Part shown: one piece after another, positions 4,693 to 64,000 of the stretch | Numbering within the stretch: position 1 is the first letter of the stretch | How the letters are laid out: each line of letters starts with the position of its first letter | NCBI GenBank assembly: GCA_006384855.1 | Contig: VCJN01003171.1 | Span: 62,001 to 126,000, forward strand | DNA: 64,000 nucleotides | Origin: Tetraselmis striata | Taxonomy: Eukaryota > Chlorophyta > Chlorodendrophyceae > Chlorodendrales > Chlorodendraceae | Reading direction: 5' to 3' | Notes under the pieces: model-generated | Databases searched by the model: none | Told to the model about the DNA's origin: nothing | What the model saw: only the letters and a program-made list of their open reading frames with translations | Program-made: the position numbers and the translations under genes

Positions 4693-5319
4693 TACGAATG
4701 GTAGTACATGGTGGTGCGCCAATAGTATATTGTGCAGTGTTAAACGGTGTTTTCAGTTTATGTAATGCGTCATCCTGCTACACTTGCTGTATTCCTTGGT
4801 GGGGCGGCAACGCAGGCTGGCAATATAGGTGGCAAGGAATACGGAATACAGCATCACCAAATGGCGCACTATCACAACACTCCACTCTCCATTCTCAAGT
4901 CTCAACTCTCAAACCTACGCCCAGCCACTCCCCCCCCCCCCCCAAGCTGACTATGGAAGCCGCGCAAGTTGCCTCGGAGGCCGGCGATGCGGAGGCCGAA
5001 GTCGACATGCAGGCCGCTGGCAACGAAGAGAGCATGCCGCCGCCGCCGCCAACATGAGGTACTAGCAACGCTGGTGGACCCCCGCGTCTGTCCTGGGGAC
5101 ATTTTTGTCATGGCTGCCCGAGACGAGGAAGAGAGAGCGCAGCGCCGCGGCAGCAAGGCACTCATGAGGCGATGCATGGCGGGGGCGCTGTTGCCAACAC
5201 TGCTGGAGCTGAAGCTGCACATGGAGCGAGAGAAGAATGCATTCACCCAGATGCGAGCCGAAGCCGCCCCCCAAGCGCCGCGTTGCCTTGTGTGACCTCG
5301 ATAGTGATGAGGCTAGTGG
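4693..5319 (+). pseudogene. Conserved acidic/basic ORF flank, interrupted by LTR
   Basis: This segment is shared with 54031-54651 (about 90% identity by eye). It has an open frame at 4969-5295 with 'DIFVMAARDEEERAQRRG' and 'LELKLHMEREKNAF', a charged, probably helical stretch. In this copy the frame is cut after 'MRAEAA' by a short indel; in the sister copy it continues through 'TKRCVALCDLDSDEATG' into the LTR. Conservation of the frame between copies suggests a coding exon, either of the composite element or of a host gene. The family is not recognised. A poly-C run lies at 4929-4943. Confidence 0.45.
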
Positions 5320-5832
5320 TGTCTTGAGTAGTAATAGATTACACTGGTCTGTTACTGATCTACTGATCTGACTGTAAGACCACCAGCTGCAGTGTTAGGC
5401 AGACTGCACTGCCCACTGGGAGTTGGATGTGTTGCGCCGATATTTGGCACTAGTACTTAGGTATAGTACATAATGGCATAATATATTAAGGAGCTGAGAG
5501 CTCCCCCCGGAGGCCAGTTCCTAGAGAGCCATCAGCAGGCGTGTGGCGAACATGCCCACTCTGGAATGACCTAAGATGGTCATGCAACTCTGGGCACCAC
5601 CTCAGCCAGTAGCTTAGAGACAGGGACCGCCAGAATGGCGGCTGAACAGGCTTTATATACTAGCAGAATACAGCAGTGCCAAGGAGCACCAGCCAGCATC
5701 CCCAGCTGAGCTCATAGTCAGCAGGTGTAGCTGCTGATAGTACTAAGGGCTCTGTTCAACCCTGAGAACTGTAACAGATTCTAAGCCACCCGCAGCGGTT
5801 GCTTGTCTCCAAGGCAACCTGCACCAACTCCA
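5320..5832. mobile_element. Solo LTR of the methyltransferase-bearing element
   Basis: This ~513-bp sequence starts TGTCTTGAGTAG and ends CAACTCC(A). It matches both LTRs of the element at 54652-58754 over its whole length. Flanking sequence on both sides also matches the flanks of that element, so this copy is what remains after recombination between the two LTRs of an equivalent insertion. Shared internal landmarks are 'gaccaccagctgcagtg', 'aggagctgagagctcc' and 'cttgtctccaaggcaacc'. No clean target-site duplication can be read. Confidence 0.8.
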
Positions 5833-7160
5833 AAAATGAGCTAGCTGCAAAGGGCGATCAGGAAGCCACCCCAAAAGGCAATAGGAAACGTCCACTACAG
5901 CAATTATATATGTCGATCATACATGATGGGTTTCGTTACACGGGGTAGAGTCGGGCCAAGGCAAAGTACGTACTACTACTGCTGGCGGCAGCAATAATTA
6001 TCTCGGGCCCCCTTCGGATTCCACACATAATGTTACACGCATATTGCCACATGTCAAATGCCGCGCGCGCACCGCACACTGTCGCATTGACCCTACCACA
6101 CCATGCGCACGCCCCTTCATGAGTTTCCCGGCAACGACCGCAACGGCATAGGCTTTGCATGGGTTTCTAGACTAGAAGCGACCCAAGCGAAATCACACCC
6201 ATAAAACATGCAGAGAATTTGTGGCCTTCTGTAGGTCGATTCTGGAGCCGCGAAAGTGCGATGACTGAAGTAAAGCCTTTCCATAGCTACCAAAACAACA
6301 AGGCACTCCTGGCGACATGACTTTTGTCTGGTATTGCACCCTCCACGCAACGGTGATATCGGTATCTTTGCGAAGGGCGCTTGTATGCTTTGATTGGTAC
6401 TGGCTGCTTGTTGTGATGTATCTCAGCGCCACGCAATGCAGCAGTTGGTCTTACAGCTGCAATACGTCCCATACGCCTCAGCCCTCCCACGTTTGACAGC
6501 TATGGTGCTGTTCGACAGCGGTGACACCGTCATGACATGGTCGCGATACACCGGTCCCTATGAATCTTGCGTTGGCGCCACAGGGCCGCCCATCCTCAGC
6601 CCACTAGTGCTGTGCCCCGTCTGCCCCCCCCCCCCCCCCCCCCCCCCCGCCCCCTTCTGCCATCTCTGGGGAGCTCATGCCGATTTGCTGTCTGTGAAGT
6701 TGCCGGGGATGCGGGTGCCGGGCGACACCGCCTGTTGCTCCTGGCCAGACAGGTACCCCACCAGCTTCTTCACCAGAATCTGCGCCGCCGTACAACAGAG
6801 GACACACGTCATCAGCCGGCTATCCGCTTTTGAACCTCACGCAGCGGTGGTTCAACGCAGGGCGGCGGGATGTGAGGTCTCGGACAGAAGCTTCACTAGC
6901 AGGGTCCATAGTGTTGAACTGGCTAGCAGATAGGATTCTTATGGACAGAATGTACAGTCTACTGGGGCTCAAGGTTCTCACGTAATGTTTGCGGCGGATT
7001 ATCTCGGGCAGAGAATGCATATTAAATGACCGTGCTGCCATGCTGTACTTACGTTTTAACAGAAGGGATGATAATTGGGAGATTAACAGGAAGTACATTC
7101 CAGGGCATGCTTTCAGGGACGCAAGGTATAGCAGGTTTCGCACTGGTATAGCAGGTATCC
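5833..7160. repeat. 3' flank of composite block, duplicated at 58755-60150
   Basis: From 'atgagctagctgcaaaggg' to about 7160 this matches 58758-60150 with small indels. It includes a 25-base poly-C run at 6626-6650 that is only a few C in the sister. Short open frames exist on both strands (6394-6933 +; a protein-like minus-strand stretch 'LVKKLVGYLSGQEQ' near 6760), but none shows a known domain or is intact in both copies. It is probably old element or gene-fragment sequence carried along in the duplicated block. Confidence 0.7.
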
Positions 7161-7407
7161 GTGCTAGGGTTGAATAATAGGGTGTAAAGCGTGGGTTTAT
7201 TTACTGGGGTCCTAATTCGGGACTACGGCGAGCCGTACCTCCGGATAGTCCTCATGCGGCTGCAGGGTTTTAGAAAGGTCCGGTATAGCAGGTATCCGTG
7301 CTAGGGTTGAATAATAGGGTGTAAAATGTGAGTTTACTGCGGTCCGAATTCGGGACTGCGGCGAGCCATACCTCCGGATAGTCCCCCTGCGGCTTAGTGG
7401 GGTTTTA
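7140..7407. repeat. Two-copy tandem repeat, ~137-bp unit
   Basis: The motif 'ggtatagcaggtatccgtg' occurs at 7145 and 7282, each followed by 'ctagggttgaataataggg', then 'cgggact.cggcgagcc' and 'acctccggatagtcc'. A single diverged version is present at about 60050-60155. The duplication lies directly before the first recognisable exon of the coiled-coil gene and may mark the block boundary. Confidence 0.75.
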
Positions 7408-48245: not shown

Positions 48246-51200
48246 ACACCCCTCCACATAAGTCCGGGTTTTGCATTTTCGATCGCAAAGCGCATGCATG
48301 GGCGAGGATAACGCCGGCTGCATGTGCATACATGCTAACTACAGTGGGAATAGTTCGGGCGAACGCCTATTGTGCGCTTTATACCCACCCGCGCGACAAC
48401 ACGACCATTTGTGGGCGCCCTTTCAAAAACGCGAAATCATTGCATGGTGCGTTGGCGCCAGAAAGTTGTGGGTTGCGCCAACCGTCCAAACCTATGGAAA
48501 TAGCGGCACTCGTCGCACCAAACTCGGTGGATACGGCCCTTGGCATAAGTTGCACACACCGTGCGTGTAGGCCACTGAAAGCATGTCGCTATAGGCACGA
48601 CGTGACACCCCAACGTCAAGTTGGCCACTGTGGGGAGCAGTTTTGGGGTGAAAATGCTGCTGTTTCTGTGGCGAACGCACGTAGGAGAGGCGCTCGATGG
48701 CCCCCTTGGCGTAGGGCAATGCTCTACTATGGGGGCGCGTGGTGGAATGCCAGTTGCACCGTTTCGTGGGCGGGGTGGCGCGGTAGGGGCGTGGATTTTG
48801 ATTAATATGAAATTCCTTGAAAAATGATGTGGAAAATGGCATTTTGGCTGGTAGATGTGTGTATCGCTAGGAGGTGGCACATGCCAAGTGTTGGTGGTCC
48901 GTGGTCATCCACATACATAACGCTCTCGCGCAACTGAGTATGGGGCTTAGACACGCACTTGGCGCAAAGCCACGCGCCCGATATGGGTGGGCACATGAGG
49001 CAGTGAGGGGCAACTTGGATGATCATCTTTGGGGATTTTTTCCGGAGACCCAAAAAATCGATTTTGTGATTATGGAAGAGTGTTCCCGACGCAGAATTGA
49101 ACGAGGAATGGCGTGATATTTTTAAAACGTTTTTCTGAGCAAACCCTGAGAAGTTATAGCGTTTTGAAGCCAAGGGGGTGTTGCCGCGCGTGGCCGACAC
49201 TGATGCCATGCCAGTATCGCAACGCGACATGCACTGGCCGCCGCCCACACGGCCGCACCCCAAACAAATGCACCCGAGCCCCTCACCAATGTGTTTCCTC
49301 ACGCGTTCATGGCCATCCCGCCGTTTGGTTGCCTATGCACGCGCGTCGGCGTGTGCGTGATACCGACCCCGGTTTTGGTGCAGTTGCAGGCGACGCCCAT
49401 CCACGCACCAAGTGCAGCGTGATTCCCTAGTCAAAGGTCATTAAGCTTCGGTTTGAGCCACTCGTCATGCAGGTTTTATAAAGCCCTCTGAGATTCCAGG
49501 GTTTCATCTCATATACCCTACGTTCAGGTACCCTAGACTTGTGAAGTCTTGAGAATGCCGAAAAGGGACCCCAAACTTATGTGCAGGGGTGTGTTGGCCA
49601 TATGTCATTCGGCCATATACGGCCGACGCGGCATGTTTGAATCACCCCAATGCTCCTACTGGCTGCATATGCCCATGACGCATCCACATGCGAGCCACGG
49701 GCTCGAAAGGGCTCACTGTCCCAAGACGCCTTATTGCGACCTCGTCGAGCGCGCTTGGTGCGGCGCACACCCCTCCACATAAGTCCGGGTTTTGCATTTT
49801 CGATCGCAAAGCGCATGCATGGGCGAGGATAACGCCGGCTGCATGTGCATACATGCTAACTACAGTGGGAATAGTTCGGGCGAACGCCTATTGTGCGCTT
49901 TATACCCACCCGCGCGACAACACGACCATTTGTGGGCGCCCTTTCAAAAACGCGAAATCATTGCATGGTGCGTTGGCGCCAGAAAGTTGTGGGTTGCGCC
50001 AACCGTCCAAACCTATGGAAATAGCGGCACTCGTCGCACCAAACTCGGTGGATACGGCCCTTGGCATAAGTTGCACACACCGTGCGTGTAGGCCACTGAA
50101 AGCATGTCGCTATAGGCACGACGTGACACCCCAACGTCAAGTTGGCCACTGTGGGGAGCAGTTTTGGGGTGAAAATGCTGCTGTTTCTGTGGCGAACGCA
50201 CGTAGGAGAGGCGCTCGATGGCCCCCTTGGCGTAGGGCAATGCTCTACTATGGGGGCGCGTGGTGGAATGCCAGTTGCACCGTTTCGTGGGCGGGGTGGC
50301 GCGGTAGGGGCGTGGATTTTGATTAATATGAAATTCCTTGAAAAATGATGTGGAAAATGGCATTTTGGCTGGTAGATGTGTGTATCGCTAGGAGGTGGCA
50401 CATGCCAAGTGTTGGTGGTCCGTGGTCATCCACATACATAACGCTCTCGCGCAACTGAGTATGGGGCTTAGACACGCACTTGGCGCAAAGCCACGCGCCC
50501 GATATGGGTGGGCACATGAGGCAGTGAGGGGCAACTTGGATGATCATCTTTGGGGATTTTTTCCGGAGACCCAAAAAATCGATTTTGTGATTATGGAAGA
50601 GTGTTCCCGACGCAGAATTGAACGAGGAATGGCGTGATATTTTTAAAACGTTTTTCTGAGCAAACCCTGAGAAGTTATAGCGTTTTGAAGCCAAGGGGGT
50701 GTTGCCGCGCGTGGCCGACACTGATGCCATGCCAGTATCGCAACGCGACATGCACTGGCCGCCGCCCACACGGCCGCACCCCAAACAAATGCACCCGAGC
50801 CCCTCACCAATGTGTTTCCTCACGCGTTCATGGCCATCCCGCCGTTTGGTTGCCTATGCACGCGCGTCGGCGTGTGCGTGATACCGACCCCGGTTTTGGT
50901 GCAGTTGCAGGCGACGCCCATCCACGCACCAAGTGCAGCGTGATTCCCTAGTCAAAGGTCATTAAGCTTCGGTTTGAGCCACTCGTCATGCAGGTTTTAT
51001 AAAGCCCTCTGAGATTCCAGGGTTTCATCTCATATACCCTACGTTCAGGTACCCTAGACTTGTGAAGTCTTGAGAATGCCGAAAAGGGACCCCAAACTTA
51101 TGTGCAGGGGTGTGTTGGCCATATGTCATTCGGCCATATACGGCCGACGCGGCATGTTTGAATCACCCCAATGCTCCTACTGGCTGCATATGCCCATGAC

Positions 51201-52627
51201 GCATCCACATGCGAGCCACGGGCTCGAAAGGGCTCACTGTCCCAAGACGCCTTATTGCGACCTCGTCGAGCGCGCTTGGTGCGGCGCACACCCCTCCACA
51301 TAAGTCCGGGTTTTGCATTTTCGATCGCAAAGCGCATGCATGGGCGAGGATAACGCCGGCTGCATGTGCATACATGCTAACTACAGTGGGAATAGTTCGG
51401 GCGAACGCCTATTGTGCGCTTTATACCCACCCGCGCGACAACACGACCATTTGTGGGCGCCCTTTCAAAAACGCGAAATCATTGCATGGTGCGTTGGCGC
51501 CAGAAAGTTGTGGGTTGCGCCAACCGTCCAAACCTATGGAAATAGCGGCACTCGTCGCACCAAACTCGGTGGATACGGCCCTTGGCATAAGTTGCACACA
51601 CCGTGCGTGTAGGCCACTGAAAGCATGTCGCTATAGGCACGACGTGACACCCCAACGTCAAGTTGGCCACTGTGGGGAGCAGTTTTGGGGTGAAAATGCT
51701 GCTGTTTCTGTGGCGAACGCACGTAGGAGAGGCGCTCGATGGCCCCCTTGGCGTAGGGCAATGCTCTACTATGGGGGCGCGTGGTGGAATGCCAGTTGCA
51801 CCGTTTCGTGGGCGGGGTGGCGCGGTAGGGGCGTGGATTTTGATTAATATGAAATTCCTTGAAAAATGATGTGGAAAATGGAATTTTGGCTGGTAGATGT
51901 GTGTATCGCTAGGAGGTGGCACATGCCAAGTGTTGGTGGTCCGTGGTCATCCACATACATAACGCTCTCGCGCAACTGAGTATGGGGCTTAGACACGCAC
52001 TTGGCGCAAAGCCACGCGCCCGATATGGGTGGGCACATGAGGCAGTGAGGGGCAACTTGGATGATCATCTTTGGGGATTTTTTCCGGAGACCCAAAAAAT
52101 CGATTTTGTGATTATGGAAGAGTGTTCCCGACGCAGAATTGAACGAGGAATGGCGTGATATTTTTAAAACGTTTTTCTGAGCAAACCCTGAGAAGTTATA
52201 GCGTTTTGAAGCCAAGGGGGTGTTGCCGCGCGTGGCCGACACTGATGCCATGCCAGTATCGCAACGCGACATGCACTGGCCGCCGCCCACACGGCCGCAC
52301 CCCAAACAAATGCACCCGAGCCCCTCGCCAATGTGTTTCCTCACGCGTTCATGGCCATCCCGCCGTTTGGTTGCCTATGCACGCGCGTCGGCGTGTGCGT
52401 GATACCGACCCCGGTTTTGGTGCAGTTGCAGGCGACGCCCATCCACGCACCAAGTGCAGCGTGATTCCCTAGTCAAAGGTCATTAAGCTTCGGTTTGAGC
52501 CACTCGTCATGCAGGTTTTATAAAGCCCTCTGAGATTCCAGGGTTTCATCTCATATACCCTACGTTCAGGTACCCTAGACTTGTGAAGTCTTGAGAATGC
52601 CGAAAAGGGACCCCAAACTTATGTGCA
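48246..52627. repeat. 1521-bp satellite, 2.9 nearly identical units
   Basis: Units start at 48246, 49767 and 51288 ('cacccctccacataagtcc'), exactly 1521 bp apart; the third is cut after about 1340 bp. Only a handful of differences were seen (for example at 51880-51885 and 52328). 1521 is a multiple of 3, so frames repeat in register: the same open frames recur on both strands (166 codons at 48802-49302 -, 212 at 49688-50326 +, 147 at 48437-48880 -). None has a recognised domain, and overlapping frames on both strands argue against coding. It behaves as a young long-monomer satellite. Confidence 0.92.
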
Positions 52628-52899
52628 TGGGTGTATAAACAGCGACTCCGCGGATGCGTAGTCGTACTAATACTTTAGCGGGGAATTATACCTGCTAGTA
52701 TGGCAGAACATTATGGCTAAAAGGGAAATGGAGTATAATACTCTCTCACCTTAGGCACAAGCGTCCTCGCTGTGCAGGCGTCACAGAACTACAGTAAACT
52801 ACAGTCTTGGTCTTGAAGTCAAGGCGGAAGGCACTCGGCTTTTTTTTTCGCCCCCGGGACAGGACTGGCACCAGTGAAACCCTTGCAGCGTCTCTACGA
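52628..52899. other. Spacer between satellite and Ty3 remnant
   Basis: About 270 bp with no gene. A 'tttttttttcgcccccggg' stretch near 52842 resembles one at 1021-1040 in family A. It may include the 3' end of the Ty3 element lying on the minus strand. Confidence 0.35.
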
Positions 52900-52906
52900 C
52901 GGCCGT

Positions 52907-53611
52907 TTAGGCAGCAGGTACTCGGCTTGGGTAGCGATTACGGAACCGAATGAAGTCTGGGCTCGCAGTAAAGTGTGGGTATGGTTTAGACAGCAGTAAG
53001 AACGACCGGAAAATGTCCAAGTGTTTGACTCCGCGTAGGGGCTCCCAGGTGTCTTCGCTTGGTACGTTGTACGGGAACGCCCATCGTACTCGAAACAGTA
53101 GTCCAGTGCCAGTGTTGTTGAAAACAACATCGAGTATGTCTTGAACATGGAATCGGTTTGCGTCATAGACAATCGGTGCTCGTTCAGGCTTCGTCTTTTG
53201 CTTGGTCAGGGTCGTCATACCACTTCTCCAGCATACTCGCGTGCACCACGTCGTGGACTCGTACGCCCGCAGGTAGTTGCAATCGGAAAGCAACTGGTGA
53301 GATCTGCGCTGTAATGACGAAGGGGCCCACGTAGCGATCGCGTAGCTTAGCACAAGGTTGCTGAATAAACCTCAGATGAGACGCTTTCAGCTTAACTCTG
53401 TCGCCGGTCTTGAATGGTATGGGTACTCGTTTACGATTAGCTGCAGTCTGCATAAGAGTTTGAGCCTCCAATACGCAATCATGCGCGAAGCGATGAAGCT
53501 CCTGTACATACTTGACGTGTTCCGGAAGAGCTCGAGTTGGCTCGGTTGCGAGTTGAGTAGTAGCATGTGTAGTCGGCTCGAATCCCAAAGTTGCCTTGAA
53601 GTTGCCTGGCG
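52907..53611 (-). pseudogene. Ty3/gypsy integrase C-terminus plus chromodomain, broken
   Basis: Minus-strand reading. The first frame (about 53600-53184) gives 'LGFEPTTH', 'QELHRFAHDCVLEAQ', 'GDRVKLKASHL', 'LRDRYVGPFVI' and 'VHDVVHASMLEKWYDD', the usual end of Ty3 integrase (GPY/F-type module). A change of frame in the linker leads to a chromodomain (about 53150-52990): 'FHVQDILDVVF', 'LLFRVRWAFPYNV' and 'TWEPLRGVKHL', with the aromatic cage region recognisable. The chromodomain of such chromoviruses directs integration to marked chromatin. Protease, RT, RNase H and the integrase core are absent, and the fragment abuts DIRS sequence of opposite orientation at about 53611. Confidence 0.85.
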
Positions 53612-54030
53612 TGACCCGCGGTGCGAGGCCGTCCACCGCCTGCGCCTCTCCGACGCTGCATGGCGTTGCGAACGTAACTGGTGTAACCCTCCATGGAACC
53701 TCATCGGCGATCTTGTCTCCAAACTGGAGTCCAGCAATGCCCCAGCCATCGTCATTGTTCCCTACTGGCCTGACAAAGCTTGGTACCGGCTCCTCTCGGA
53801 GATGTGCTCCGACACGGGCTCATGGAAGCCGCGTCACGACCTCTTCATTCCCGGCCGTACTGGCGACCGCCTTCCCGTGGGTGCACCCCGCTGGCGTGTC
53901 GTCGCCTTCAACATTCCCGCTTGTGGCTTGCTGCGCCCGGCATGTCCGAATCCGCAGAGAAATTGTACTATAATCGCCCCAGGTGTCGCACGTTGCTGCA
54001 TCCGTACCAGGCCCACATATGCGGCATATA
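53612..54030 (+). pseudogene. DIRS-like RNase H-distal fragment, longer than the first copy
   Basis: Matches 4478-4690, then continues about 200 bp that the first copy lacks. In one frame it reads 'WRDPRCEAVHRLRL', 'VIVPYWPDKAWYRLLSEMCS', 'HDLFIPGRTGDRLPVG' and 'RVVAFNIPACG', uninterrupted; at the base where the first copy has TGA this copy has TGG. The W-P-x-x-x-W-Y block followed by 'LF.PG' is typical of the region after RNase H in DIRS-like pol. It is only the tail of an element; upstream RT and RNase H are missing. Confidence 0.75.
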
Positions 54031-54651
54031 GTACAAGGTGGTGCGCCAATAGTATATTGCGCAGTGTTAAACTGTATTTTCAGTTTCTGAAATGCGTCAT
54101 CCTGCACTTGCTTTATGCCTTGGTGGGGCAGCAACGCAGGCGGGCGCCCGCCCGCCGCCAAGGCATACGGAATACAGCATCACAAAACGGCGCACAATTA
54201 CAGCACTCCAAGTGTCAACTCTCAAACCTACGCCCAGCCACCTTCCCCCCCCCCCCCCCCCCCCCCCCACCTCAAGCTGACTGTGGAAGCCGCGCAAGTT
54301 GCCTCGGAGGCCGGCGATGCGGAGGCCGAAGTCGACATGCAAGCCGCCGGCAACGAAGAGAGCATGCCGCCGCCGCCGTCAACATGAGGTACTAGCAACG
54401 CTGGTGGACCCCCGCTTCTGTCCTGGGGACATTTTTGTCATGGCTGCCCGAGACGAAGAAGAGAGAGCGCGGCGCCGCGGCAGCAAGGCACTCATGAGGC
54501 GATACAAGGCGGGGCCACTGTTGTCAACACTGCTGGAGTTGAAGCTGCACATGGAGCGAGAGAAGAATGCATTCACACACATGCGAGCCGAAGCCGCCCT
54601 CACCAAGCGCTGCGTTGCCCTGTGTGACCTCGATAGTGATGAGGCTACTGG
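54031..54651 (+). pseudogene. Conserved charged ORF, cut by the 5' LTR
   Basis: Sister of 4693-5319. The frame at 54299-54772 runs 'DIFVMAARDEEERARRRG', 'LELKLHMEREKNAFTHMRA', 'LTKRCVALCDLDSDEATG' and then enters the LTR at 54652 and terminates. The frame is better preserved than in the first copy, consistent with a real exon disrupted by the LTR element. No known family; the 54245-54268 poly-C run precedes it. Confidence 0.45.
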
Positions 54652-55142
54652 TGTCTTGAGTAGTAATAGTTCTACTGACCTGACTGTAAGCGCACCAGCT
54701 GCAGTGTTAGGCAGACTGCACTGCCCACTCGGAGTTGGATGTGTTGCGCCTATATTTGGCACTAGTACTTAGGTATAGTACATATGTGGCACAATATATC
54801 AAGGAGCTGAGAGCTCCCCCCGGAGGCCAGTTCTTAGAGAGCCATCAGGAGGCATGAGGCGAACATGCCCACTCTAGAATGACCTCAGATGGTCATGCAA
54901 CTCTGGGCACCACCTCAGCCAGTAGTTTAGAGACAGGGACCGCCAGAATTGCGGCTCAACAGACTTCATATACTAGAATACAGCAGTGCCAAGGTGCGCC
55001 AGCCAGCATCCCCAGCTGAGCTCATATCCAACAGGTGTAGATGCTGATAGTACTAAGGGCTCTGTTGAGCCCTGAGAACTGTATCAGATTCTAAGCCACC
55101 CGCAGCTGCTGCTTGTCTCCAAGGCAACCTGCACCAACTCCA
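54652..55142 (+). repeat. 5' LTR
   Basis: Begins TGTCTTGAGTAG and ends near CAACTCCA. Compared with the 3' LTR it lacks about 14 bp near 54672 and some 10 bp near 54770, and carries scattered substitutions. It should hold the promoter; an AT-rich 'acaatatatc' lies at about 54791. Confidence 0.8.
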
Positions 55143-55180
55143 AGACGTTATGGGCCCTCGACGCTCCCACTGCGGGGTGC

Positions 55181-56475
55181 TTGTCAAGCAGTGACAAGAG
55201 CATCGTTGAGGTCAGTGATGCTGATGACACCTGCAGCGCGTATCACCACCAACAGGTCTCCCATCTGCTTTTTTCACTGCTTGACAAGCACCTCATCGCA
55301 GTCAATGCGATTTTGACAGCATGTGAGGATGCTGGGCCCAATGGTCGGCAAACTTACCACTGTTTGGAAGCTCTGCGCCTCGAGTTCATCCCAAGTCATG
55401 AATGTGAAGCCCTCGAGCGGCGTCGTGACCTGGATGAGAAGCAACGCTCAATCGAGTCGATGCGTGACTTCGCTCGCCGTCTGGAGCAGTGCCGCAGTGC
55501 GATGTTGGATGCAGGTGGTCACATCACAGATAGTGAAATGTTCACCCCCTCTTCAAACATGGAATGAATCCCGAGATGGAGATGTACCGCGTTGCACTGC
55601 GCATGGACACCTCACTCACCACTTTTGCTCGCCACAAAGCGGCGCTCTTCCAATCACTCCCAAGTCCAAGCACTGACCCGACTAGAGCCTTCACCGCAGT
55701 GTATGCTCAGACATCCGCACCCCCACTGGCAGCCGTTTCATCACCGCCGACCGCTCCATCAGGTGACATTGCCGCCCTGATGGCGAAGCTGGAGCAGATG
55801 CAAACTCAGCTCCTAGCTCAGTCACAGGAAATCAGCAGATTCCGGGGCCGCCACACAGGTCCTAGTGGCCCTCGCACCTCTCGTTCGTTCACTGGCAAGT
55901 GTTGGACCTGCGGGCCTCAGGGGCACAGTGAATCAGAATGTCGTGCCAAGGCCCATGTAGCAGCGAACGCTGCTCTAGCAGCTACCTCATCTACTCAGGA
56001 CTTTGGTGCACTGTCATTCAGCTTCCTTGCAGATGATGCGAGGCCTGTCCCTCTTGCTGAGACTCCACTGCCCCCAATGCCACCCCAAGCCTGGTCGGTT
56101 GACAGCAGCGGTGTCACGATGCGCAGCCCACCAGTGTCCGTGCCTCGGGGCCGGTTTGTCACTCTCACCTTTGTCGACGAGAGCAGACCGCTCATGATTT
56201 CTCCACCAGCCCGCTCACCCACACCCGAGCCAATATGTGCGGGCTTGAGCACTCCTGTGCCACGTGCTTGTCAGCGCGCGTGCCAAAGGCAAAGGTCCGA
56301 CGCACATGCCCGATGCGCGCAGTCTCAACGCGCTTGGAGGGGATGCATTCATGTGGCAGTGGGTACACACCAAGACTCGTCACAACATCAGCATGACAAG
56401 CGCGGTCACCACTCCGCTGACGGCGACCACAGTCCACCCGTGCCAAGCATTGGCAGGAGGGCGTCCACTTGGTGA
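55181..56475 (+). CDS. gag-like polyprotein with CCHC zinc knuckle (frameshifted)
   Basis: Nucleocapsid-type protein expected to bind element RNA and assemble particles. Two overlapping frames are needed: 55181-55567, which contains 'FSLLDKHLIAVNAILTAC' and 'ESMRDFARRLEQCRSAML', and 55564-56475. The protein-like reading moves between them at the C-run and T near 55545-55550, consistent with one missing base or a programmed shift. A short 'LMAKLEQMQTQLLAQSQEI' coiled coil (about 55779) precedes the knuckle C-x2-C-x4-H-x4-C at 55900-55941. A Pro/Ser-rich tail follows. From 56264 to 56860 further protein-like passages lie in two other frames ('EIEELVSEPAILSPSQRR'), suggesting more frame damage. 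No ATG is at the frame start; the true start is uncertain. Confidence 0.7.
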
Positions 56476-56900
56476 CCCTGACGAAGAGCCTCTCCTTGTG
56501 CGTCAGCGTGAGACACTCGCGGAGCACATGCCCTCGCGGTGGAAGAACGGGCCACACAAGCCGCGATGGAGGAGGTGGCCGCAGCACATGTCATGGAAAT
56601 CGAGGAGTTGGTCTCGGAGCCGGCAATCCTCAGCCCCTCGCAACGCCGGAACAACGACCTCAAATGGCTACATCAGTACGTGTATGAGTGTTACCTCAAG
56701 CATGTACCAGCCGCACCGCCGCAGCGACCGGCGCTCCCGCCGAGTGGCCGTCGCACCAAGCGCCAGATGTGTCAGGCTTTCTGCCGCATGCGGGGCAGAC
56801 GCCAGCCCCCCCCCCCCCCCCCCCCCCCCCCCGCCCCCCCAGGACGCCTGCTTAGATAGACAAGACCCATCTGGCTCTCCAGTTTAACACTACAGAGCAG

Positions 56901-58244
56901 ATGGAGAGCTCGGCTACAGTTGCGGCTGTGGAAGCGTTTCAGAGCACACCTCATGTCTTCGACTTCTATGGCTCTCACCTGCTCGCGAGACAGCCGAGAG
57001 GCGATCCAATGCGCTCAGCATCCGCCATAAACATCCCGCGCCCGACACGGAATCCACTGTCAACGCACCCCAGACGGTTGCGCAGCACTCCAGGCCTAGG
57101 CAACCTGATGCATGTCAGCAATACCTACACTAACCAGACAGGCAGTGATGGAGACATGCCTGACCTCGAGTCCAACTCTGACACATCAGATGACTCTGAC
57201 TCTGATGAGCATAAACGCTCTGCCCACACCGAGCACACCGAGGGAGACATGCCGTCTCTCGCTCCCGACTCCACCGATGACAGCAGTGATACGGACTACG
57301 ATGATGACTCTCCTGGAGGTGCTTACATGAGGCGTGCGCTGACATCGCTCGCAGCAGTACATCGCGATGAAGCCCGTCACCATGACAAGGGGCTGATTGA
57401 CCGCAATACCAAGCAACGATGGCGACGCCGCACACCGCGTCAACGTCGCCGAGCTCGCCGCCGCGCGCAGCATTGGTGCACCCGCACTGACACTGCAGAC
57501 CAATTGTCAGCATGGGCTGCATGCCAACAGCAAGAGCGTGACATTCAGGACAGCATTGCCCCTCTGGCGGAGATTCAACACCTGAAGCCCGATAGCACAG
57601 CCTTCAGCAAGTCACGGCGTATTCACTACGTTGGCCTATGCAGCGGAGCAACTTTCACCATCCTTGGTGAACTGTGCTGATTAGGGCATCGTTTCGGTAT
57701 GATGACACTGGTGGAGAACGACCGTGCAATCGCAGCCGCATCTCAGTCAGACCTACATACTCTACAAAACAAATGGTCTCACAGCTTGCCCCGTGCGGCC
57801 GTGGACAATGCGTTTGACGATCGCCTCCCATCACAAGATGTCAACCAACTCTCGGCTGAGGACTTCCAATCTCTGCCACCTGTCGACCTGGTGGTCAGCT
57901 CCCCACCGTGTCAACTGTTCTCTGTTGCGGGGCTCGGTCTAGGCCTGCGAGACGACCGAGTACAGGCCTCCCATCCGGTAACCAGACTCACTTATGAGAT
58001 CCAGCGCAAACAGCCGCACGGTCTCAACTATGTGGTGGAAAATGTCACTGGCGCAGCTCGAACACCACAGATCCGCGCAGCCCTTGGGCAGCCCATGCTC
58101 GCACGAGCGCACAAATTGGGCTCCACCGCACGACGTGGCACGCTATTCTGAACCAAAGCACTGCCACGACCTCAATTTGAGGCACTCAGCGATGAGGTCA
58201 TGACTGATATGCAAGCTGCAGCAACCAGTGAGGAGGGGTGTTGA
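56901..58244 (+). CDS. C5-cytosine DNA methyltransferase domain in retroelement (two in-frame TGA)
   Basis: One reading frame with TGA at 57678-57680 and 58149-58151. The N-terminal ~235 codons are an acidic, Asp/Ser-rich linker ('ESNSDTSDDSDSDEH') and a basic patch ('RRRTPRQRRRARRRAQ'), possibly DNA-binding. The methyltransferase follows: motif I-like 'YVGLCSGATFTILGEL' (about 57626), motif II 'LVENDRAIAAAS' (about 57705), motif IV 'VVSSPPCQLFS' with the catalytic Cys codon at 57909, and motif VI 'YVVENV' with Glu at 58038. Cys-to-Glu spacing is 43 residues, as in genuine C5 enzymes. 'ARAHKLGSTARRGTLF' may be the motif VIII region. The target-recognition domain and motifs IX/X are absent, as the frame ends at the 3' LTR. 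The reaction would be transfer of methyl from S-adenosylmethionine to cytosine C5 in DNA. As read, the copy is truncated and probably inactive. Confidence 0.8.
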
Positions 58245-58754
58245 GTAGTAATAGATTACGCTGGTCTATTACTGATCTACTGATCTGACTGTAAGACCAC
58301 CAGCTGCAGTGTTAGGTAGACTGCACTGCCCACTGGGAGTTGGATGTGTTGCGCCGATATCCAGTACTTAGACGCTAGTACTTAGGTATAGTACATACAT
58401 GGCATAATATATTAAGGAGCTGAGAGCTACGCGAGGAGTACACTTCCTAGAGCGCCATCAGCAGGCATGTGGTGAACATGCCCACTCTTGAATGACCTCA
58501 GATGGTCATGCAACTCTGGGCGCCACCTCAGCCAGTAGTTTAGAGACAGGGGCTGCCAGAATGGCGGCTCAACAGGCTTTACATACTAGAATACAGCAGT
58601 GCCAAGGTGCATCAGCCAGCATCCCCAGCTGAGCCCATAGCCAGCGGGAGCTACTGCTGATTGTACTAAGGGCTCTGTTGAGCCCTGAGAACTGTAACAG
58701 ATTCTAAGCCACCCGCAGCTGCTGCTTGTCTCCAAGGCAACCTGCACCAACTCC
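58239..58754 (+). repeat. 3' LTR
   Basis: Starts TGTTGAGTAG and ends CAACTCC, matching the 5' LTR and, more closely in its first 100 bp, the solo LTR at 5320-5832 ('attac.ctggtct.ttactg' is present in both and missing from the 5' LTR). The last codons of the methyltransferase frame overlap its first bases. Confidence 0.8.
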
Positions 58755-60150
58755 GAAAATGAGCTAGCTGCAAAGGGCGATCAGGAAACCACCCCAAAAG
58801 GCAATAGGAGACGTCCACTACAGCAATTATATATGTCGATCATACATGATGGGTTTCGTTACACGGGGTAGAGTCGGGCGAAGGCAAAGTACGTACTACT
58901 ACTGGCGGCAGCAATAATTATCTCGGGCCCCCTTCGGATTCCACACATCATGTTACACGCATATTGCCGCATGTCAAATGCCGCGCGCGCACCGTACACT
59001 GTCGCATTGACCCTAGCACACCATGCGCACGCCCTTTCATTAGTTTCCCGGCAACGACCGCAACGGCATAGGCCCTGCATGGGTCTATCGACGGAATCGA
59101 TCCAAGTGAAATCACACCCATGAAACATGCACAGAATTTGTGGCCTGCTGTATCTCGATGCTGGAGACGAAAGTGCGATGACTGAAGTAAAGCCTTCCCA
59201 CAGCTACCAAAACAACAAGGCACTCCTGGCGACATGACTTTTGTCTGGTATTGCACCCTCCACGCAACGGTGATATCGGTATCTTTGCGAAGGGCGGTTG
59301 TAGTACGCTGTGATTGGTACTGGCTGCTTGTTGTGATGTATCTCAGCGCCACGCAATGCAGCAGTTGGTCTTACAGCTGCAATACGCCCCATACGCCTCA
59401 GCCCTCCCACGTTATATGTTGTATGTTACAGCTATGGTGCTGTTCGACAGCGATGACACTGTCATGACATGATCGCAATACACCGGTCCCTACGAATCTC
59501 GCGTTGGCGCCACAGGGCCATTCATCCTCAGCCCACCAGTGCTGCGCCCCGCCTGCCCCCGCCCCCTTCTGCCATCTCTGGGGAGCTCATGCCGATTTGC
59601 TGTCTGTGAAGTTGCCGGGGATGCGGGTGCCGGGCGACACCGCCTTCTGCTCCTGGCCAGACAGGTACCCCACCAGCTTCTTCACCAGAATCTGCGCCGC
59701 CGTACAACAGAGGACACACGTCATCAGCCGGCTATCCGCTTTTGAACCTCAGCCATCACGCAGCGGTGGTTCAACGCAGGGCGGCGGGATGTGAGGGCTG
59801 GAACAGGATCTTCACTCGCAGGGTCCATAGTGTTGAACTGTCTGGCAGATGGGATTCTCATGGACAGGGTGTAGTCTTTTAGGGTTCAAGGCTCGAACAT
59901 CATACTTGCGGGGATTATTTAGGGCAGAGGATGCATGGTAAATGGCCGTGCTGCTGCATTACTGTGCGGATGTTTTATTTTCAGAACACAACGGGGAGTT
60001 TAATCGGAAGTACATTCCAGGGCATGCGTTCAGGGACGCAAGGTCCGGCACGGGTATCGTAGGTATCCGTGGTAGGGTTCAATAGGATGTAATCTGTGTG
60101 TTTGCTGGGGTTCTAATTCGGCACCACAGAGTCGCACCTCCGGATAGTCC
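58755..60150. repeat. 3' flank of composite block, second copy
   Basis: Collinear with 5833-7160 with small indels; for example the poly-C at 59555-59562 is short here and an extra 'ttatatgttgtatgttac' is present near 59411. It carries a single copy of the 137-bp unit that is doubled at 7140-7407. No intact gene was recognised. Confidence 0.75.
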
Positions 60151-60651
60151 TCCTGCGGCATGTGTCCAACCTGGAGGGGCGAAACGGGAGGGAGGGGGAA
60201 TATAGTCATTGGTCCCTGACGATGCCTAGCCGCTGTACCTGTTGTGTGCGTTTATATCCTTTGTTGGTTTGCACCGGGACGCAACCAGCCGCCTTGCAGC
60301 ACCCCATGAGACAGACGCCTTCAGCGATGAAGGGTAAGACGGTGCCCAGCGACATCGCACACGCACTCCCTTGCACAAGCCCCCACACATCCTGCACCGG
60401 CAACCAACCTGATGAATGTTTGTGCACTGGTGTAGCTGCAACATCGGGACGTGTAACATATACACGTATGGATGGGTGCTCCCAATAGCATAATGACACA
60501 ATGTACATCAATTAAGGGATCTCGCAGCAAAGACTGCAGGCTGGCTGGCTTTCTCTTGGGATTGCTGGGTAGTGTTGTGCGTGACTAGTGCCATTGTAAA
60601 AGCCCCTGCCCCTTCATCCTGGAATTCCTCAATTTTCACGCGGAGAGACCC

Positions 60652-60682
<31 letters not shown>

Positions 60683-60892
60683 CACAACTGCATCTCACTG
60701 GAAGCCCCTTCCGCAATGAGCTGCATCACGAGCGTTACGCGGTGCTGCAAAGAGCACCGCAAAGGGGCTGCCAATGAAGTTGCAATCCAAACATGAGAAG
60801 TGATTCTTGCACTACCAGAGGAGACGGTCCATTGGGGAGAGCGATGGAGGTGCGTACGAGGAACATGGGAGGGGGGGGGGGGGGGAGCGCAC
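60151..60892. other. 3' side of the hydrolase gene, terminal exon not found
   Basis: The hydrolase should have at least one more exon here with the catalytic His region. I searched the minus strand for a 'GH..Q/D' type block following a splice acceptor and did not find a convincing one. Poly-C (60651-60668) with CA repeats and poly-G (60871-60885) lie here. Small frames such as 60162-60488 (+) have no domain. Confidence 0.4.
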
Positions 60893-61714
60893 CTTGGCCT
60901 CGAAGGTCTGGATCTTGATGCAGGTGCGCTTGGTCTCCAGGAAGTCAAATGCGCTCTGCTGCGTGATGTAGCTGTCGGATCCGCCAAAGAGAACCAGCGT
61001 GTCGGTGCGCCAGCTCTCGTACAGCTCGTCCACAGTGCTCACCAGCTCCTTCAGGTCGCACTGCGCCGCGCGGATCAAAGGGGGGGGGGGGAAGGGAGGA
61101 GATATCAGTTCAGCGCCCTACAGCAGGAGAGCACCTTATCGACGTCGCTATTTCCTTCCAATCTGCCCTACCTTGTCGAGCGTGGCCACCAGCGCCTCGT
61201 TGGCGCCCTGGTCTTCCACATAAGGCGCGTTGTACACCTGTGTTGAGGTGCAGGCGTGAGCTCAGCGGGGCTGCCGCTGGATGTGTTGAGCAGGCAGGGG
61301 TGGGTGCGGGTTGGGGGCCGACCTCTGCGTCCTTGTACTGCATGATGTATGCAGAGCCGCCGGCATTATGCATGTCCGCCGCAAAGGCGCCCTGATGGCG
61401 GTGGCGATGATGCGGTGGCAGCAAGGCCGGGGGGGGGGGGGGGGGGGGGGTCAGCTCCTGCTTGGAGAGTGGGCCAGTACTGCAGTGCAGGGGCTGCGGG
61501 GCGGCAGGGTACAGGGCGCGCCTTGGGGCGCATGAAGGAGATGGGGTTCTTGTAGGGCGCCAGGTACGGCGGCAGCTTGGTCTTGGGGCTCAGCGGTGTA
61601 TTCAGGATGACAAGCTTCTCGACCATGTCGGGGTTCTCCGCCGCCCAGAGCAGCGCATACTGCGCCAGGATGAAGCCCTGCAGGCCAAGGGGCCAGGTGA
61701 TATGAGTCAGAGGG

Positions 61715-61757
<43 letters not shown>

Positions 61758-62492
61758 TTGTGACTCTTCCCTGAAGCTGGTTCGGCGTTGCAGTGGGATT
61801 TTTGAGTGCGTAATGACCCCTTCAGCTGGCTTACCTGCACCACGAGCACCACCGGCTTGCTGAAGGGTGCCGCCTGAATGAAATCGCCCAGCGCAGCCTT
61901 GTACGCAGCGCCATCGTACGCAAAGCTGGAGGGGGAGGGCTGAACATGCGGAAGGAATGGTCGTTAGCATGAGAACGCGTCATCCAGGGCATGTGAGTGC
62001 ACATACGTATACTGTGTGTGGATATGTGCGTTCACGCGCGCATGCGCGCGTGTGTGTGTGTGTGTGTGTGCATGCAAAGGGGACAAGGGGAGAGAAGGAG
62101 CGCACCTTGCTGGAGGAGCCATGCCCAATAAAGTCCGGCGCATAGGCCTCATAGCCTGCTCCGGCCAGCAGCTCGAGGGTGACCCTGCTCCCACACGACG
62201 TAATCAGCGACACTGATGGCGACTAACTGCGGCTGCGACCAGCGGCCTTGCACGGGGTATACAGGCAAGCCGCTTCTTGCGCTTGAGCCTGCGGCTACCC
62301 ACCTGTAGCTGTACGAGGAGCTGCCGATGCCGTGGAGGAGCAAGATCGGCGGGCAGTCCACCCCGACGGCGGCCGCCTCGTCCGTCTCGCCTTTGCGGTA
62401 GGCCCAGGTGAGGCCGCCAGCGGTGAGCGACTCGCTGCGACGAGCAGCCATGGGCGGGGGGAAGTAAGAGCGTGTGTGTATGTGTGTGTTGG

Positions 62493-62523
<31 letters not shown>

Positions 62524-62550
62524 GTGGATAGGGCGTCCCGAGAACCAGAC

Positions 62551-62585
<35 letters not shown>

Positions 62586-62873
62586 CTTCCCGTGCGCGCG
62601 CCCTTGCGCCGCGCGCACCTGGCCACCACCTCACCTTGCAGCGGGCGCCCGAGCCGCAGAGGCTAGAATCTCGCCCGTCACGGGATCCACCTCCTCCATC
62701 TGAGCCATGACCGCCACCCCCTGGCGACGTGCAGGCTGCCGAGAAGTGCGCCGGGGCAGTGGCCCGCTGCTGCGCCGACCAACGGTGCTTCGAGAGACGC
62801 GGCTGCTACCGGCGGGGCGCGCCGCCGAGGCGCGCACGCCCGTGTTGGCGACCACCATCTGAGCCATCGCCAT
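60893..62873 (-). CDS. Plastid-type alpha/beta-hydrolase, eight exons, 3' end missing
   Basis: Exons on the minus strand: 62873-62635, 62434-62303, 62184-62106, 61939-61835, 61677-61522, 61391-61323, 61237-61172, 61060-60893; all phases join to 338 codons. The start at 62873 opens 'MAMAQMVVANTGVRASAARP', an Ala/Arg/Ser-rich leader typical of chloroplast transit peptides. The fold follows: 'PPILLLHGIGSSSYSYR' (oxyanion HG), 'YAPDFIGHGSSSK', 'KPVVLVVQ|GFILAQYALLW' at the nucleophile elbow, 'LVILNTPLSPKTKLPPYL', 'APYVEDQGANEALVATL' and 'DTLVLFGGSDSYI' (acid-loop region). The layout resembles plant plastid hydrolases of the haloalkane-dehalogenase-like group. The elbow lacks the usual Ser (G-x-S-x-G), so hydrolytic activity is doubtful. 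The intron after 61522 has a GC donor (AAG|GCGCGC). The substrate is unknown; the His-bearing end is not visible. Confidence 0.8.
61717..61754. repeat. Poly-G run in hydrolase intron (longest of many)
   Basis: A run of almost 40 G. Similar runs of poly-C or poly-G (12-30 bases) are at 2350, 4929, 6626, 10177, 12217, 12900, 13936, 15350, 24067, 54245, 56806, 60651, 60871, 61080, 61430, 62498 and 62555. In genes they sit in introns, mostly near the acceptor on the coding strand, where they act as the polypyrimidine tract. Exact lengths are likely unreliable in the assembly. Confidence 0.9.
62045..62070. repeat. (GT)n microsatellite in hydrolase intron
   Basis: A short GT tract preceded by GCGC-rich sequence in the intron between exons 3 and 4 of the hydrolase gene. 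Confidence 0.9.
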
Positions 62874-63726
62874 AGGACCGGTTTCGTGTCGGGGGAGGGA
62901 CGGGTAGGCACGGAGGGGGGGTTGCACGGGCAGAGGATGCTCGACAAGCGTGTCAGTTCCGAGTGGCTTCACTTGCGTTTGATCGGAAGGACGAGCGATG
63001 CCACTCTGGCGGGTGGGGTGGCGCGCCCTTCTGGCGTAGGTTCGCAGCAAACAGCCAGGTGCGCATATATACGGTGCGGATGAACTATCTTCGCCCTGAA
63101 AAAAACATTAATACGAGGATGAACCGGCCCGGGTCGACCTTTACTTTACCTTTACGAGGATGAACTAATAATTTCTATCAATGTCCTGTTGAATTCGCTT
63201 CGTGGCATGGTATATTGTGCGACTTAGCTGTCCACCTGTCTTCATTTCAGTACGTAGAATACTGGACAGCGTGGAAGCTCCCGATAGACGTCGACTACGC
63301 CGCTTTTATTCGCGCGGCGACTCGGCACAGCAGCGGGGGCGCAAGCATTGGGGCGCCGCGCATTACTGTTCCCTGTACTCAGGCCCATATGAGTGAAACC
63401 AAACCTAAAATTACAATTAGGGCTGTCAGGCCAGAGCGCCGCTGGCGCGGAGGGGTTGACTGGCAGACAGCGCGGCGGGCTGCGTCGGGCTCTCAATGGA
63501 CGCCGCTCACCTGCCTGATGGTCACAATACTGCGGTTTCCAAAGCCTGACATCTTCACTGGGCTGTGCGACGCTTCAGGACCGGCAGCACTGCCATTTAG
63601 CGCGACCTCCCCCCCCGAGCCGAGCGCGGTTGCCCAGCCACCTGAGGCATTAACACCGACGGGCGGCAGAGTTGGCACAGGCGGTCACCCCGAATATAGG
63701 CTGCCGGCGGCGTGGCGCATCCAGGA
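62874..63726. promoter_or_regulatory. Shared upstream region of two divergent genes
   Basis: The hydrolase (minus) and the small membrane protein gene (plus) diverge from this ~850-bp interval, so it should hold both promoters and 5' UTRs. A 'tttactttacctttacgagg' stretch at 63139 and an AT-rich patch at 63160-63215 stand out. An open frame at 63215-63796 (+) includes 'YVEYWTAWKLPIDVDYAAFI', which is protein-like but of no recognised family; it could be an exon of another gene, and it overlaps the next gene in a different frame. Confidence 0.35.
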
Positions 63727-64000
63727 ATGGCGTTCCTCCGCAGCCTTGCGGGCGGCTTGCTGGGGGGTTTCCTCGGCAGCAACCGCCACCTCCTGATCTT
63801 CGGCGGCGGCGTGGTGGTAGGCATGTGGGCGGAGCAGACCTACGCCCTGCCCCACCTGGCGACGAGTGCCACGAGGTGCAACAGCGCTCTTGCCCCCCCC
63901 CCCCCCCCCTACCTTCGTCGAGCGCGGCGCTGAATGCCGACAGTCGGATGACGAACCCCCCTCTGCTGCCTGCTCGCCCTTGCAGCGCGCTGGAGCGAGC
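63727..64000 (+). CDS. STMP1-like small membrane protein, 5' part
   Basis: Exon 1 is 63727-63875 (ATG at 63727) and exon 2 begins at 63986 after a poly-C/CTTGCAG acceptor; phase 2 joins correctly, and the gene runs off the window. The product starts 'MAFLRSLAGGLLGGFLGSNR', then a hydrophobic helix 'HLLIFGGGVVVGMWAEQTYA' and 'LPHLATSAT', continuing 'SALER'. The G-x-V-V-G-M-x-x-x-Q-x-Y-x-x-P-x-L pattern is that of short transmembrane mitochondrial protein 1 and its plant and algal relatives, micropeptides of the inner mitochondrial membrane. Family assignment is from this short pattern only. It is divergent from the hydrolase gene. Confidence 0.55.

What the first reader, a model, noticed from the sequence alone, without database searches (positions are those of the whole stretch)
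56901..58244. Cytosine DNA methyltransferase captured by an LTR retroelement
Between two LTRs, downstream of a CCHC gag, lies a C5-methyltransferase domain with motif I/II, PPCQ and ENV at normal spacing (43 residues from catalytic Cys to motif VI Glu). Retrotransposon-borne cytosine methyltransferases are documented in dinoflagellates and charophytes; such elements may methylate their own copies and so coexist with the host. Finding one in what looks like a green-algal genome could be an independent capture.
Basis: partly seen in the sequence, partly recalled or inferred. Interest (0 to 1): 0.92.

Follow-up and report, generated by a model that had tools for sequence, protein, structure and literature searches.

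The report
Copia retrotransposons carrying a DNA methyltransferase
The window holds the shortened, dead remains of a copy-and-paste genetic parasite of a green alga; intact relatives read elsewhere in the same genome carry, inside their own protein, an enzyme domain of the kind that puts methyl marks on DNA, the marks many hosts use to silence such parasites.

Summary
Window 57609-58156 (+) encodes the N-terminal half of a C5-cytosine methyltransferase between two LTRs (54654-55145, 58239-58758). This copy is dead: an in-frame stop, a frameshifted gag, and a ~4 kb deletion joining the methyltransferase to the last codons of a copia RNase H. Sister copies in the same genome (224 Mb; gene models labelled jgi/Tetstr1, so almost certainly the chlorophyte Tetraselmis striata) show the whole element: a Ty1/copia retrotransposon with one 2.1-2.5 kaa frame, gag-CCHC-linker-methyltransferase-protease-integrase-RT-RNase H. 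One long-frame copy of each of five families (A-E) was read; all five have LTR pairs 98.8-100% identical and exact 5-bp target duplications. In family B the domain is under purifying selection (dN/dS 0.16-0.20, like protease). A profile of it finds DNMT3A best in the PDB, but motif IV is PPCQ-like, not DNMT3's PCN. It forms one clade that includes the methyltransferase of a LINE-type protein; my scans found no close bacterial or viral donor. In the papers I found, DNMT retroelements are LINE, DIRS and Gypsy; one 2025 sentence says Copia. New variant of a known kind. Self-methylation is inferred, not shown.

The parts
54654..55145 (+). 5' LTR
   Evidence: 88.7% identical to the 3' LTR; about 92% to the LTRs of intact element A; ends set by comparison with A
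55146..55200 (+). remnant after the 5' LTR (GTTATGGGCC, primer-binding-site-like by my reading); about 770 bp of internal 5' sequence of A is missing in this copy
   Evidence: internal alignment to intact A and to paralogs C454 and C444 begins only at 55201
55201..56475 (+). gag remnant, in two frames (55076-55567 and 55537-56475)
   Evidence: lies in the internal part that is 88% identical to intact A
55900..55941 (+). gag zinc knuckle CX2CX4HX4C
56476..57608 (+). acidic/basic low-complexity linker, with a poly-C tract at 56806-56832
   Evidence: corresponds to the linker of intact A
57609..58156 (+). cytosine methyltransferase domain, N-terminal half: motif I 57630-57656, catalytic Cys codon 57909, ENV 58038-58046, motif VIII truncated; in-frame stops at 57678 and 58149
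   Evidence: PF00145 2.6e-7; 87% aa identity to the domain of intact A; stops and motifs
58152..58238 (+). C-terminal tail of copia RNase H, joined to the methyltransferase by a ~4.05 kb deletion at a 5-bp direct match
   Evidence: 92% identical to the last 89 bp before the 3' LTR of intact A
58239..58758 (+). 3' LTR
5322..5835 (+). solo LTR at the same site in a diverged segmental duplicate of the flanks (4476-7260 against 53606-60159), lacking the whole internal part

Best explanation
SHOWN: the window copy is a dead deletion derivative of family A of a group of Ty1/copia retrotransposons in a chlorophyte, in which a C5-cytosine methyltransferase with motifs I to X is a standing part of the gag-pol polyprotein, between the gag zinc knuckle and the protease. 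The copies read are recent insertions, and the domain is under purifying selection in the two families tested. INFERRED: the domain is made, packaged and matured with RT and integrase in the virus-like particle, and it methylates the element's own cDNA (less likely its RNA) before or at integration, so that new copies arrive already marked. A marked copy would be tolerated by the host or shielded from some attack on naked cDNA, and would be quiet early on. Confidence about 0.95 for the anatomy, about 0.45 for self-methylation as the function.
For: Intact polyproteins with the DNMT in frame between gag and protease in five families A-E, one copy each, chosen for long frames. LTR pairs 99.8, 100, 100, 98.8 and 99.2% identical with exact 5-bp target duplications ATGTA, TCCTG, GACGG, CGGAG and ATGTC. 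In one search, 150 of 465 first-look candidates were scored and all 150 matched; 26 of the 150 rows sit in a stop-free frame of 2000 aa or more, one of them the 3505-aa frame that is probably LINE-type. Family C: 36 of 119 rows at 90% identity or more, about 31 distinct places, 7 rows with the full 2147-aa frame. dN/dS in the six pairs between two B subgroups: DNMT 0.16-0.20, protease region 0.16-0.25, linker 0.42-1.11 with one pair undefined; family A, intact copy against 8 others: DNMT median 0.33, linker median 0.61. The same arrangement in a copia polyprotein from another source (P0006). A DIRS DNMT domain methylated CG de novo in yeast (PMC5890265, section 11 and passages).
Against: No activity, expression or methylation data. 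Motif IV reads PCC in family D and motif I is eroded in family E, so not every family need be active. Within B, the two pairs that compare L081 and L082 with L083 give 0.55-0.61; L083 has lesions in the domain. Decayed A copies show only a weak excess of C-to-T at CG over CHH, and the DNMT-less family X has the same CpG ratio as family C (0.84). X thrives without the domain: 45 of 150 RVT_2 rows carry its 1561-aa frame length, though only one was read. The only fold attempt failed (mean pLDDT 37.7).
Confidence: 0.75

Rival explanations
1. The domain acts on other DNA: it methylates the host genome, competing elements or the DNA of infecting viruses, and so is kept because it helps the host or disables rivals.
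For: Proposed in print for retroelement methylases (PMC6338049, passages). The same genome holds dcm-type methyltransferases in another repeated element and next to a viral-like RPB1 fragment, so methylation may be contested there.
Against: The domain is fused in gag-pro-pol ahead of the protease, which favours action inside the particle. Nothing here links it to viruses.
Confidence: 0.2
2. The domain is kept for nucleic-acid binding or polyprotein architecture, not catalysis.
For: Motif I degenerate in E and motif IV altered in D.
Against: Catalytic Cys, motif VI Asn-Val and motif VIII Trp-x-Asn are invariant in the 10 aligned members, and motif X is nearly so; in family B selection is as strong as on the protease. 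Family X does without it.
Confidence: 0.15
3. The domain acts on the element's RNA, as suggested for dinoflagellate LINE DNMTs.
For: The LINE-type protein P0007 has a DNMT of the same clade and also a PCIF1-like domain. A dinoflagellate LINE DNMT gave no DNA methylation in yeast (PMC5890265, section 11).
Against: Closest solved class by profile is DNMT3A, a DNA enzyme; DNMT2, the tRNA enzyme, scores lower there, though it matches single sequence B better than DNMT3 does.
Confidence: 0.2
4. The window shows a host gene or pseudogene trapped by chance between two LTRs, not part of the element.
For: The single window copy is truncated and has lost its pol.
Against: Sister copies of five families have the domain in frame inside the LTRs. 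A solo-LTR paralog lacks the whole unit.
Confidence: 0.01

Closest known systems
KnitGypsy-Dnmt3 (Klebsormidium nitens, charophyte; PMC5890265, section 9 read)
   Same: LTR-type retrotransposon with an intronless DNMT inside the polyprotein frame, under purifying selection
   Different: Gypsy domain content with a DIRS-like repeat structure and a DNMT3; here Ty1/copia, ordinary LTRs with 5-bp duplications, DNMT ahead of the protease, motif IV PPCQ-like rather than DNMT3's PCN.
SymbioDIRS-Dnmt3 and SymbioLINE-Dnmt (Symbiodinium; PMC5890265, sections 6 and 11 and passages)
   Same: many DNMT copies in retroelements of one algal genome, purifying selection; this genome also has a probably LINE-type frame with a DNMT
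   Different: DIRS and LINE, not copia; the paper says Symbiodinium Copia lacks any DNMT domain
'DNMT3 members ... LTR Copia and DIRS' (PMC12344493, section 5 read)
   Same: the one sentence I found that names Copia for a DNMT-bearing retroelement
   Different: cites only the 2018 paper, streptophytes and dinoflagellates, where the LTR element is called Gypsy; no chlorophyte element described in the section read
DAM- and DCM-encoding Gypsy and DIRS elements in several groups, green algae among them (PMC6338049, passages)
   Same: a retroelement methylase in green algae is stated in print
   Different: adenine and cytosine enzymes are named together, in Gypsy and DIRS; copia is not mentioned (0 occurrences)
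Animal DNMT3A/3B
   Same: best PDB match of the family profile, colinear over motifs I, IV, VI, VIII and X (second profile)
   Different: motif IV; ADD and PWWP (recalled) not seen; embedded in a retroelement polyprotein; single sequences match HaeIII or HhaI about as well or better

Membership tests
Ty1/copia LTR retrotransposon | RVT_2-type RT, with integrase ahead of RT | tested here: met
   RVT_2 3.5e-68 to 7.1e-44 in A-E; order Pol_BBD - gag_pre-integrs - rve - SH3 - RVT_2 in A-D (rve only 0.032 in D); Pol_BBD not hit in E. Met in sister copies; the window copy has lost pol
Ty1/copia LTR retrotransposon | paired LTRs and short target-site duplication | tested here: met
   5 of 5 intact elements read; the window copy has LTRs but its flanking 5-mers differ
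C5-cytosine methyltransferase (PF00145) | profile match over curated cut-off (22 bits) | tested here: met
   window piece 30.8, A 34.8, B 44, D 27, E 36.8, F 38.3, P0006 24, P0007 36.1 bits; C is below as a whole polyprotein (18.5) and just over as a domain (22.3). All 10 members of A3 match at E<=1
C5-cytosine methyltransferase (PF00145) | catalytic Cys, ENV and motif X | tested here: met
   Cys in 10 of 10; NV in 10 of 10 with Glu in 9 of 10. Not met by the window copy for motif X, which is deleted
C5-cytosine methyltransferase (PF00145) | methyl transfer to cytosine | not testable with these tools
   no assay; fold prediction of P0008 failed
DNMT3 | sequence closest to DNMT3 | tested here: inconclusive
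   profile: DNMT3A 8e-13, DNMT2 2e-9, HaeIII 9e-9; a control dcm of the same genome gives DNMT1 and HhaI instead. Single sequence B finds HaeIII first and no DNMT3 at E<=1; F finds HhaI 0.0012 and DNMT3A 0.0014
DNMT3 | motif IV PCN (SPCND) | tested here: not met
   PPCQ or variants PPCA, PPCS and PCCE in 10 of 10; DNMT3A reads SPCND in the printed alignment
Published DNMT retroelements (SymbioLINE, SymbioDIRS, KnitGypsy) | shared DNMT clade | not tested
   I had none of their sequences; no hit was named as one of them

The most novel reading that the evidence does not exclude
There is a retroelement-specific methyltransferase clade, older than the split of the copia families that carry it, that has passed as a module between unrelated retroelement classes (copia and LINE) in green algae and other protists. 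It has co-diversified with copia pol, was lost in some lineages (family X), and works in cis to pre-methylate new copies.
Probability: 0.4. Interest if true: 0.88.

Novelty: new variant of a known kind. Interest (0 to 1): 0.74.

Why it matters
DNA methylation is the classic host weapon against transposons, so elements that carry the enzyme themselves invert the usual story. In the papers I found, the described cytosine-enzyme cases are LINE, DIRS and Gypsy elements of dinoflagellates and one charophyte. Here a chlorophyte genome holds at least five copia families with the domain in the same place; two of the five copies read have identical LTRs. A related DNMT-less copia family sits in the same nucleus. 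That gives a natural plus/minus comparison: whether the enzyme marks its own copies can be read directly from nanopore or bisulfite data over families A-E against X. The clade shared with a LINE-type methyltransferase also raises whether retroelement classes exchange such modules.

Tried and rejected
PHROGs matches were generic DNA methyltransferase families. In a 41-row tree with 25 of the 34 bacterial and viral loci fetched, the retroelement rows are one side of a branch at 100/100 with a long stem (1.66), next to three bacterial-type dcm rows (95/89). So no close donor was found; the scans do not show that none exists. The first protein search, with the window piece, found nothing at 1e-3.

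Trans-mobilised non-autonomous subfamily: the two copies that share the window's pol deletion (C454, C444) also share both flanks as far as fetched (about 160 bp upstream, 1 kb downstream), so they look like segmental paralogs and not new insertions.

Stop codon reassignment (TGA as sense): dropped, because intact sister copies have frames of 2.1-2.5 kaa by the standard code.

Methylation scar: with intact A as reference, C-to-T at CG is about 1.6-2.8 times that at CHH in 12 of 13 copies (the thirteenth is nearly identical to A), and 1.4-2.2 times in the reverse comparison; weak and not directional.

Structure: AlphaFold of P0008 with four sequences gave pLDDT 37.7, so no fold search was made. 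No Rfam hit in 50000-64000, no tRNA in the window.

A note of mine says 9 family-C copies with the 2147-aa frame; the list shows 7.

Full report
WHAT IS IN THE WINDOW. The frame at 56856-58151 (+) contains a cytosine methyltransferase piece: PF00145 at 2.6e-7; NCBIfam dcm at 1.4e-10, below that model's own cut-off. The frame has a stop at 57678 and ends at 58149. It lies between two LTRs, 54654-55145 and 58239-58758, 88.7% identical, downstream of a gag in two frames with a CX2CX4HX4C knuckle at 55900-55941. The flanking 5-mers of this copy differ, so its target duplication is not visible.

A PARALOG WITH A SOLO LTR. Window 4476-7260 is a diverged copy of the flanks (about 88% identical over its long pieces) and has at the same site only one LTR, 5322-5835. 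That bounds the unit independently. Two further copies, on contigs C454 and C444, share both flanks as far as fetched and the same pol deletion.

THE WHOLE ELEMENT. The window's genome is held (224 Mb, 2903 contigs). The internal part of the window copy matches 55 places as pieces; 13 rows, the window's own included, span nearly all of the query. In the intact relative A (C2193) the LTRs are 512 bp, 99.8% identical, with duplication ATGTA, and the element is 8.9 kb with one 2483-aa frame. Its order is gag, CCHC, linker, DNMT, Pol_BBD/protease, gag_pre-integrase, rve, SH3, RVT_2, and then copia-type RNase H by my reading. Against A, the window copy lacks about 770 bp at the 5' end of the internal part and about 4.05 kb from methyltransferase motif VIII to near the end of RNase H. 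The sequence after 58151, which I first took for more methyltransferase, is RNase H tail.

OTHER FAMILIES. B (C1197, 2299 aa), C (C997, 2147 aa), D (C1860, 2152 aa) and E (C1014, 2162 aa) have the same order, with the DNMT at the same place; in D and E the zinc knuckle is weak or absent by Pfam and was seen by reading. LTR identity is 100, 100, 98.8 and 99.2%, with exact 5-bp duplications in each. One copy per family was read, chosen for its long frame, so these are not a random sample of ages. With the window's 181-residue piece, 150 of 465 first-look candidates were scored and all 150 matched; pieces of one copy may be counted twice, and the tool calls its counts lower bounds. 26 of those 150 rows lie in a frame of at least 2000 aa. 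With the family C domain there are 119 matches, 36 rows of them at 90% identity or more.

HOST. The family B region matches gene models labelled jgi/Tetstr1 at 94-100% identity. That Tetstr1 stands for Tetraselmis striata is my recall; the taxonomy is Chlorophyta, Chlorodendrophyceae.

BEYOND THIS GENOME. P0006, a copia polyprotein from an unnamed source, carries the domain at the same place, 35% identical. P0010 has the C-terminal half followed by a protease-like start (by reading). P0007 is a LINE-type protein (endonuclease, RVT_1, RNase H) with a PCIF1-like domain and the DNMT. In the window's genome a 3505-aa frame on C2687 looks alike, but I read only about 2.0 kb plus 4.9 kb of it: DNMT and RNase H were seen, its RT was not.

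RELATIONSHIPS. The domains of 14 rows (13 retroelement members and the window) form one side of a branch at 100/100 against nine dcm-type enzymes. Labels: 'copia' rests on pol for A-E and P0006, on reading for P0010, and on likeness alone for G (L075) and B2 (L078); 'LINE' rests on RVT_1 for P0007, on RNase H for F, and on likeness alone for P0008 and P0011. The four rows called LINE form a clade (100/100) that falls among the copia domains (87/86), but copia monophyly is not rejected (AU p 0.194). The pol tree gives ((A,B),C) and (D,E), each starred, with P0006 and the DNMT-less family X on the A-C side; the DNMT tree pairs D with E (94/94) and groups A, B and C (93/91), and puts P0006 with D, E and the LINE rows, not with A-C (87/86), so the two agree only in part. 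X (C1926, 1561 aa, no DNMT) has an RT-RNase H part about 48.5% identical to A and B, more than D or E have. A single early gain with loss in X, or later transfer, both fit.

CLASS OF THE ENZYME. A ten-member profile ranks DNMT3A first in the PDB (8e-13), ahead of DNMT2 and HaeIII, with the alignment running in pieces from motif I to motif X. A second, four-member profile of other sequences agrees. Another methyltransferase of the same genome gives DNMT1 and HhaI, so the result is not a bias of the tool. Against this, single sequences of B and F rank HaeIII or HhaI first, and motif IV is PPC[Q/A/S] or PCCE, not PCN. I call it DNMT3-like, not DNMT3. A 2023 survey found no DNMT3 in green algae of the MMETSP set (PMC9998398, passages).

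SELECTION. In the six pairs between two B subgroups (L051, L027 against L081, L082, L083) the DNMT has dN/dS 0.16-0.20, the protease region 0.16-0.25, and the linker 0.42-1.11 with one pair undefined; L081 and L082 against L083 give 0.55-0.61, and L083 carries lesions. L083's linker is nearer to L051, so it may be a recombinant. In family A the intact copy against eight others gives DNMT 0.25-0.42 (median 0.33), linker median 0.61 (eight copies) and gag median 0.56 (seven copies). Comparisons among the other A copies run up to 0.99, as expected of dead copies. Copies were those already fetched, not chosen at random. C, D and E were not tested.

MECHANISM. Shown: anatomy, recent insertion of the copies read, constraint in A and B. 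Inferred: co-packaging with RT, action on cDNA, and benefit through pre-marking. The 2018 authors proposed this for DIRS elements and report CG methylation in yeast (PMC5890265; sections 6, 9, 11 and passages). Nothing here tests it for copia.

NOVELTY. Eight literature searches (open-licence PubMed Central only, and only the top 15-20 of 21-647 papers were listed) showed me no paper on DNMT-bearing copia elements or on Tetraselmis retroelement methyltransferases. One sentence of a 2025 paper speaks of DNMT3 in 'LTR Copia and DIRS' elements, citing the 2018 paper, which says Gypsy. A 2019 opinion speaks of DAM- and DCM-encoding Gypsy and DIRS elements in several groups including green algae, without saying which enzyme is in which group (PMC6338049, passages). 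Subscription papers and supplements were not seen, so priority is not certain.

Noticed in passing
L074 (G000:C2687:19600-21600) and L087: A probably LINE-type frame of 3505 aa in the same genome carries a methyltransferase of the same clade ahead of RNase H; its relative P0007 also has a PCIF1-like domain, the cap-RNA methyltransferase family (recalled). Two methylation-related domains in one LINE is unusual.
   Followed up: partly
L001-L006, L008: A different, complete dcm-type methyltransferase (325-aa frame in L001-L006, 323 in L008; L002 is DNMT1/HhaI-like) recurs, in most of these loci beside a repeated protein with the stretch NDDDLCFKYC; the L002 copy of that protein has no Pfam hit. 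Perhaps another mobile or virus-like element carrying its own enzyme.
   Followed up: partly
L007 (G000:C2385:454794-458405): A dcm-type methyltransferase lies beside an Rpb1 fragment and an IS630-like transposase, suggesting an inserted giant-virus segment.
   Followed up: partly
L088 (G000:C1926:1400-6900): An abundant DNMT-less copia family with a 1561-aa frame (45 of 150 RVT_2 rows have that frame length; one read), a natural control for the DNMT-bearing families.
   Followed up: partly
window 48246-52634: Near-perfect tandem repeat of a 1521-bp unit, about 2.9 copies.
   Followed up: no
window 52894-53819 (-): Fragment of a Gypsy-type element with integrase C-terminal SH3 (Tf2-1-like, 2.8e-16) and a weak chromodomain match below cut-off.
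   Followed up: no
window 21115-23214 and 24717-26575: Tandem arrays with units of about 126 bp and 215 bp.
   Followed up: no
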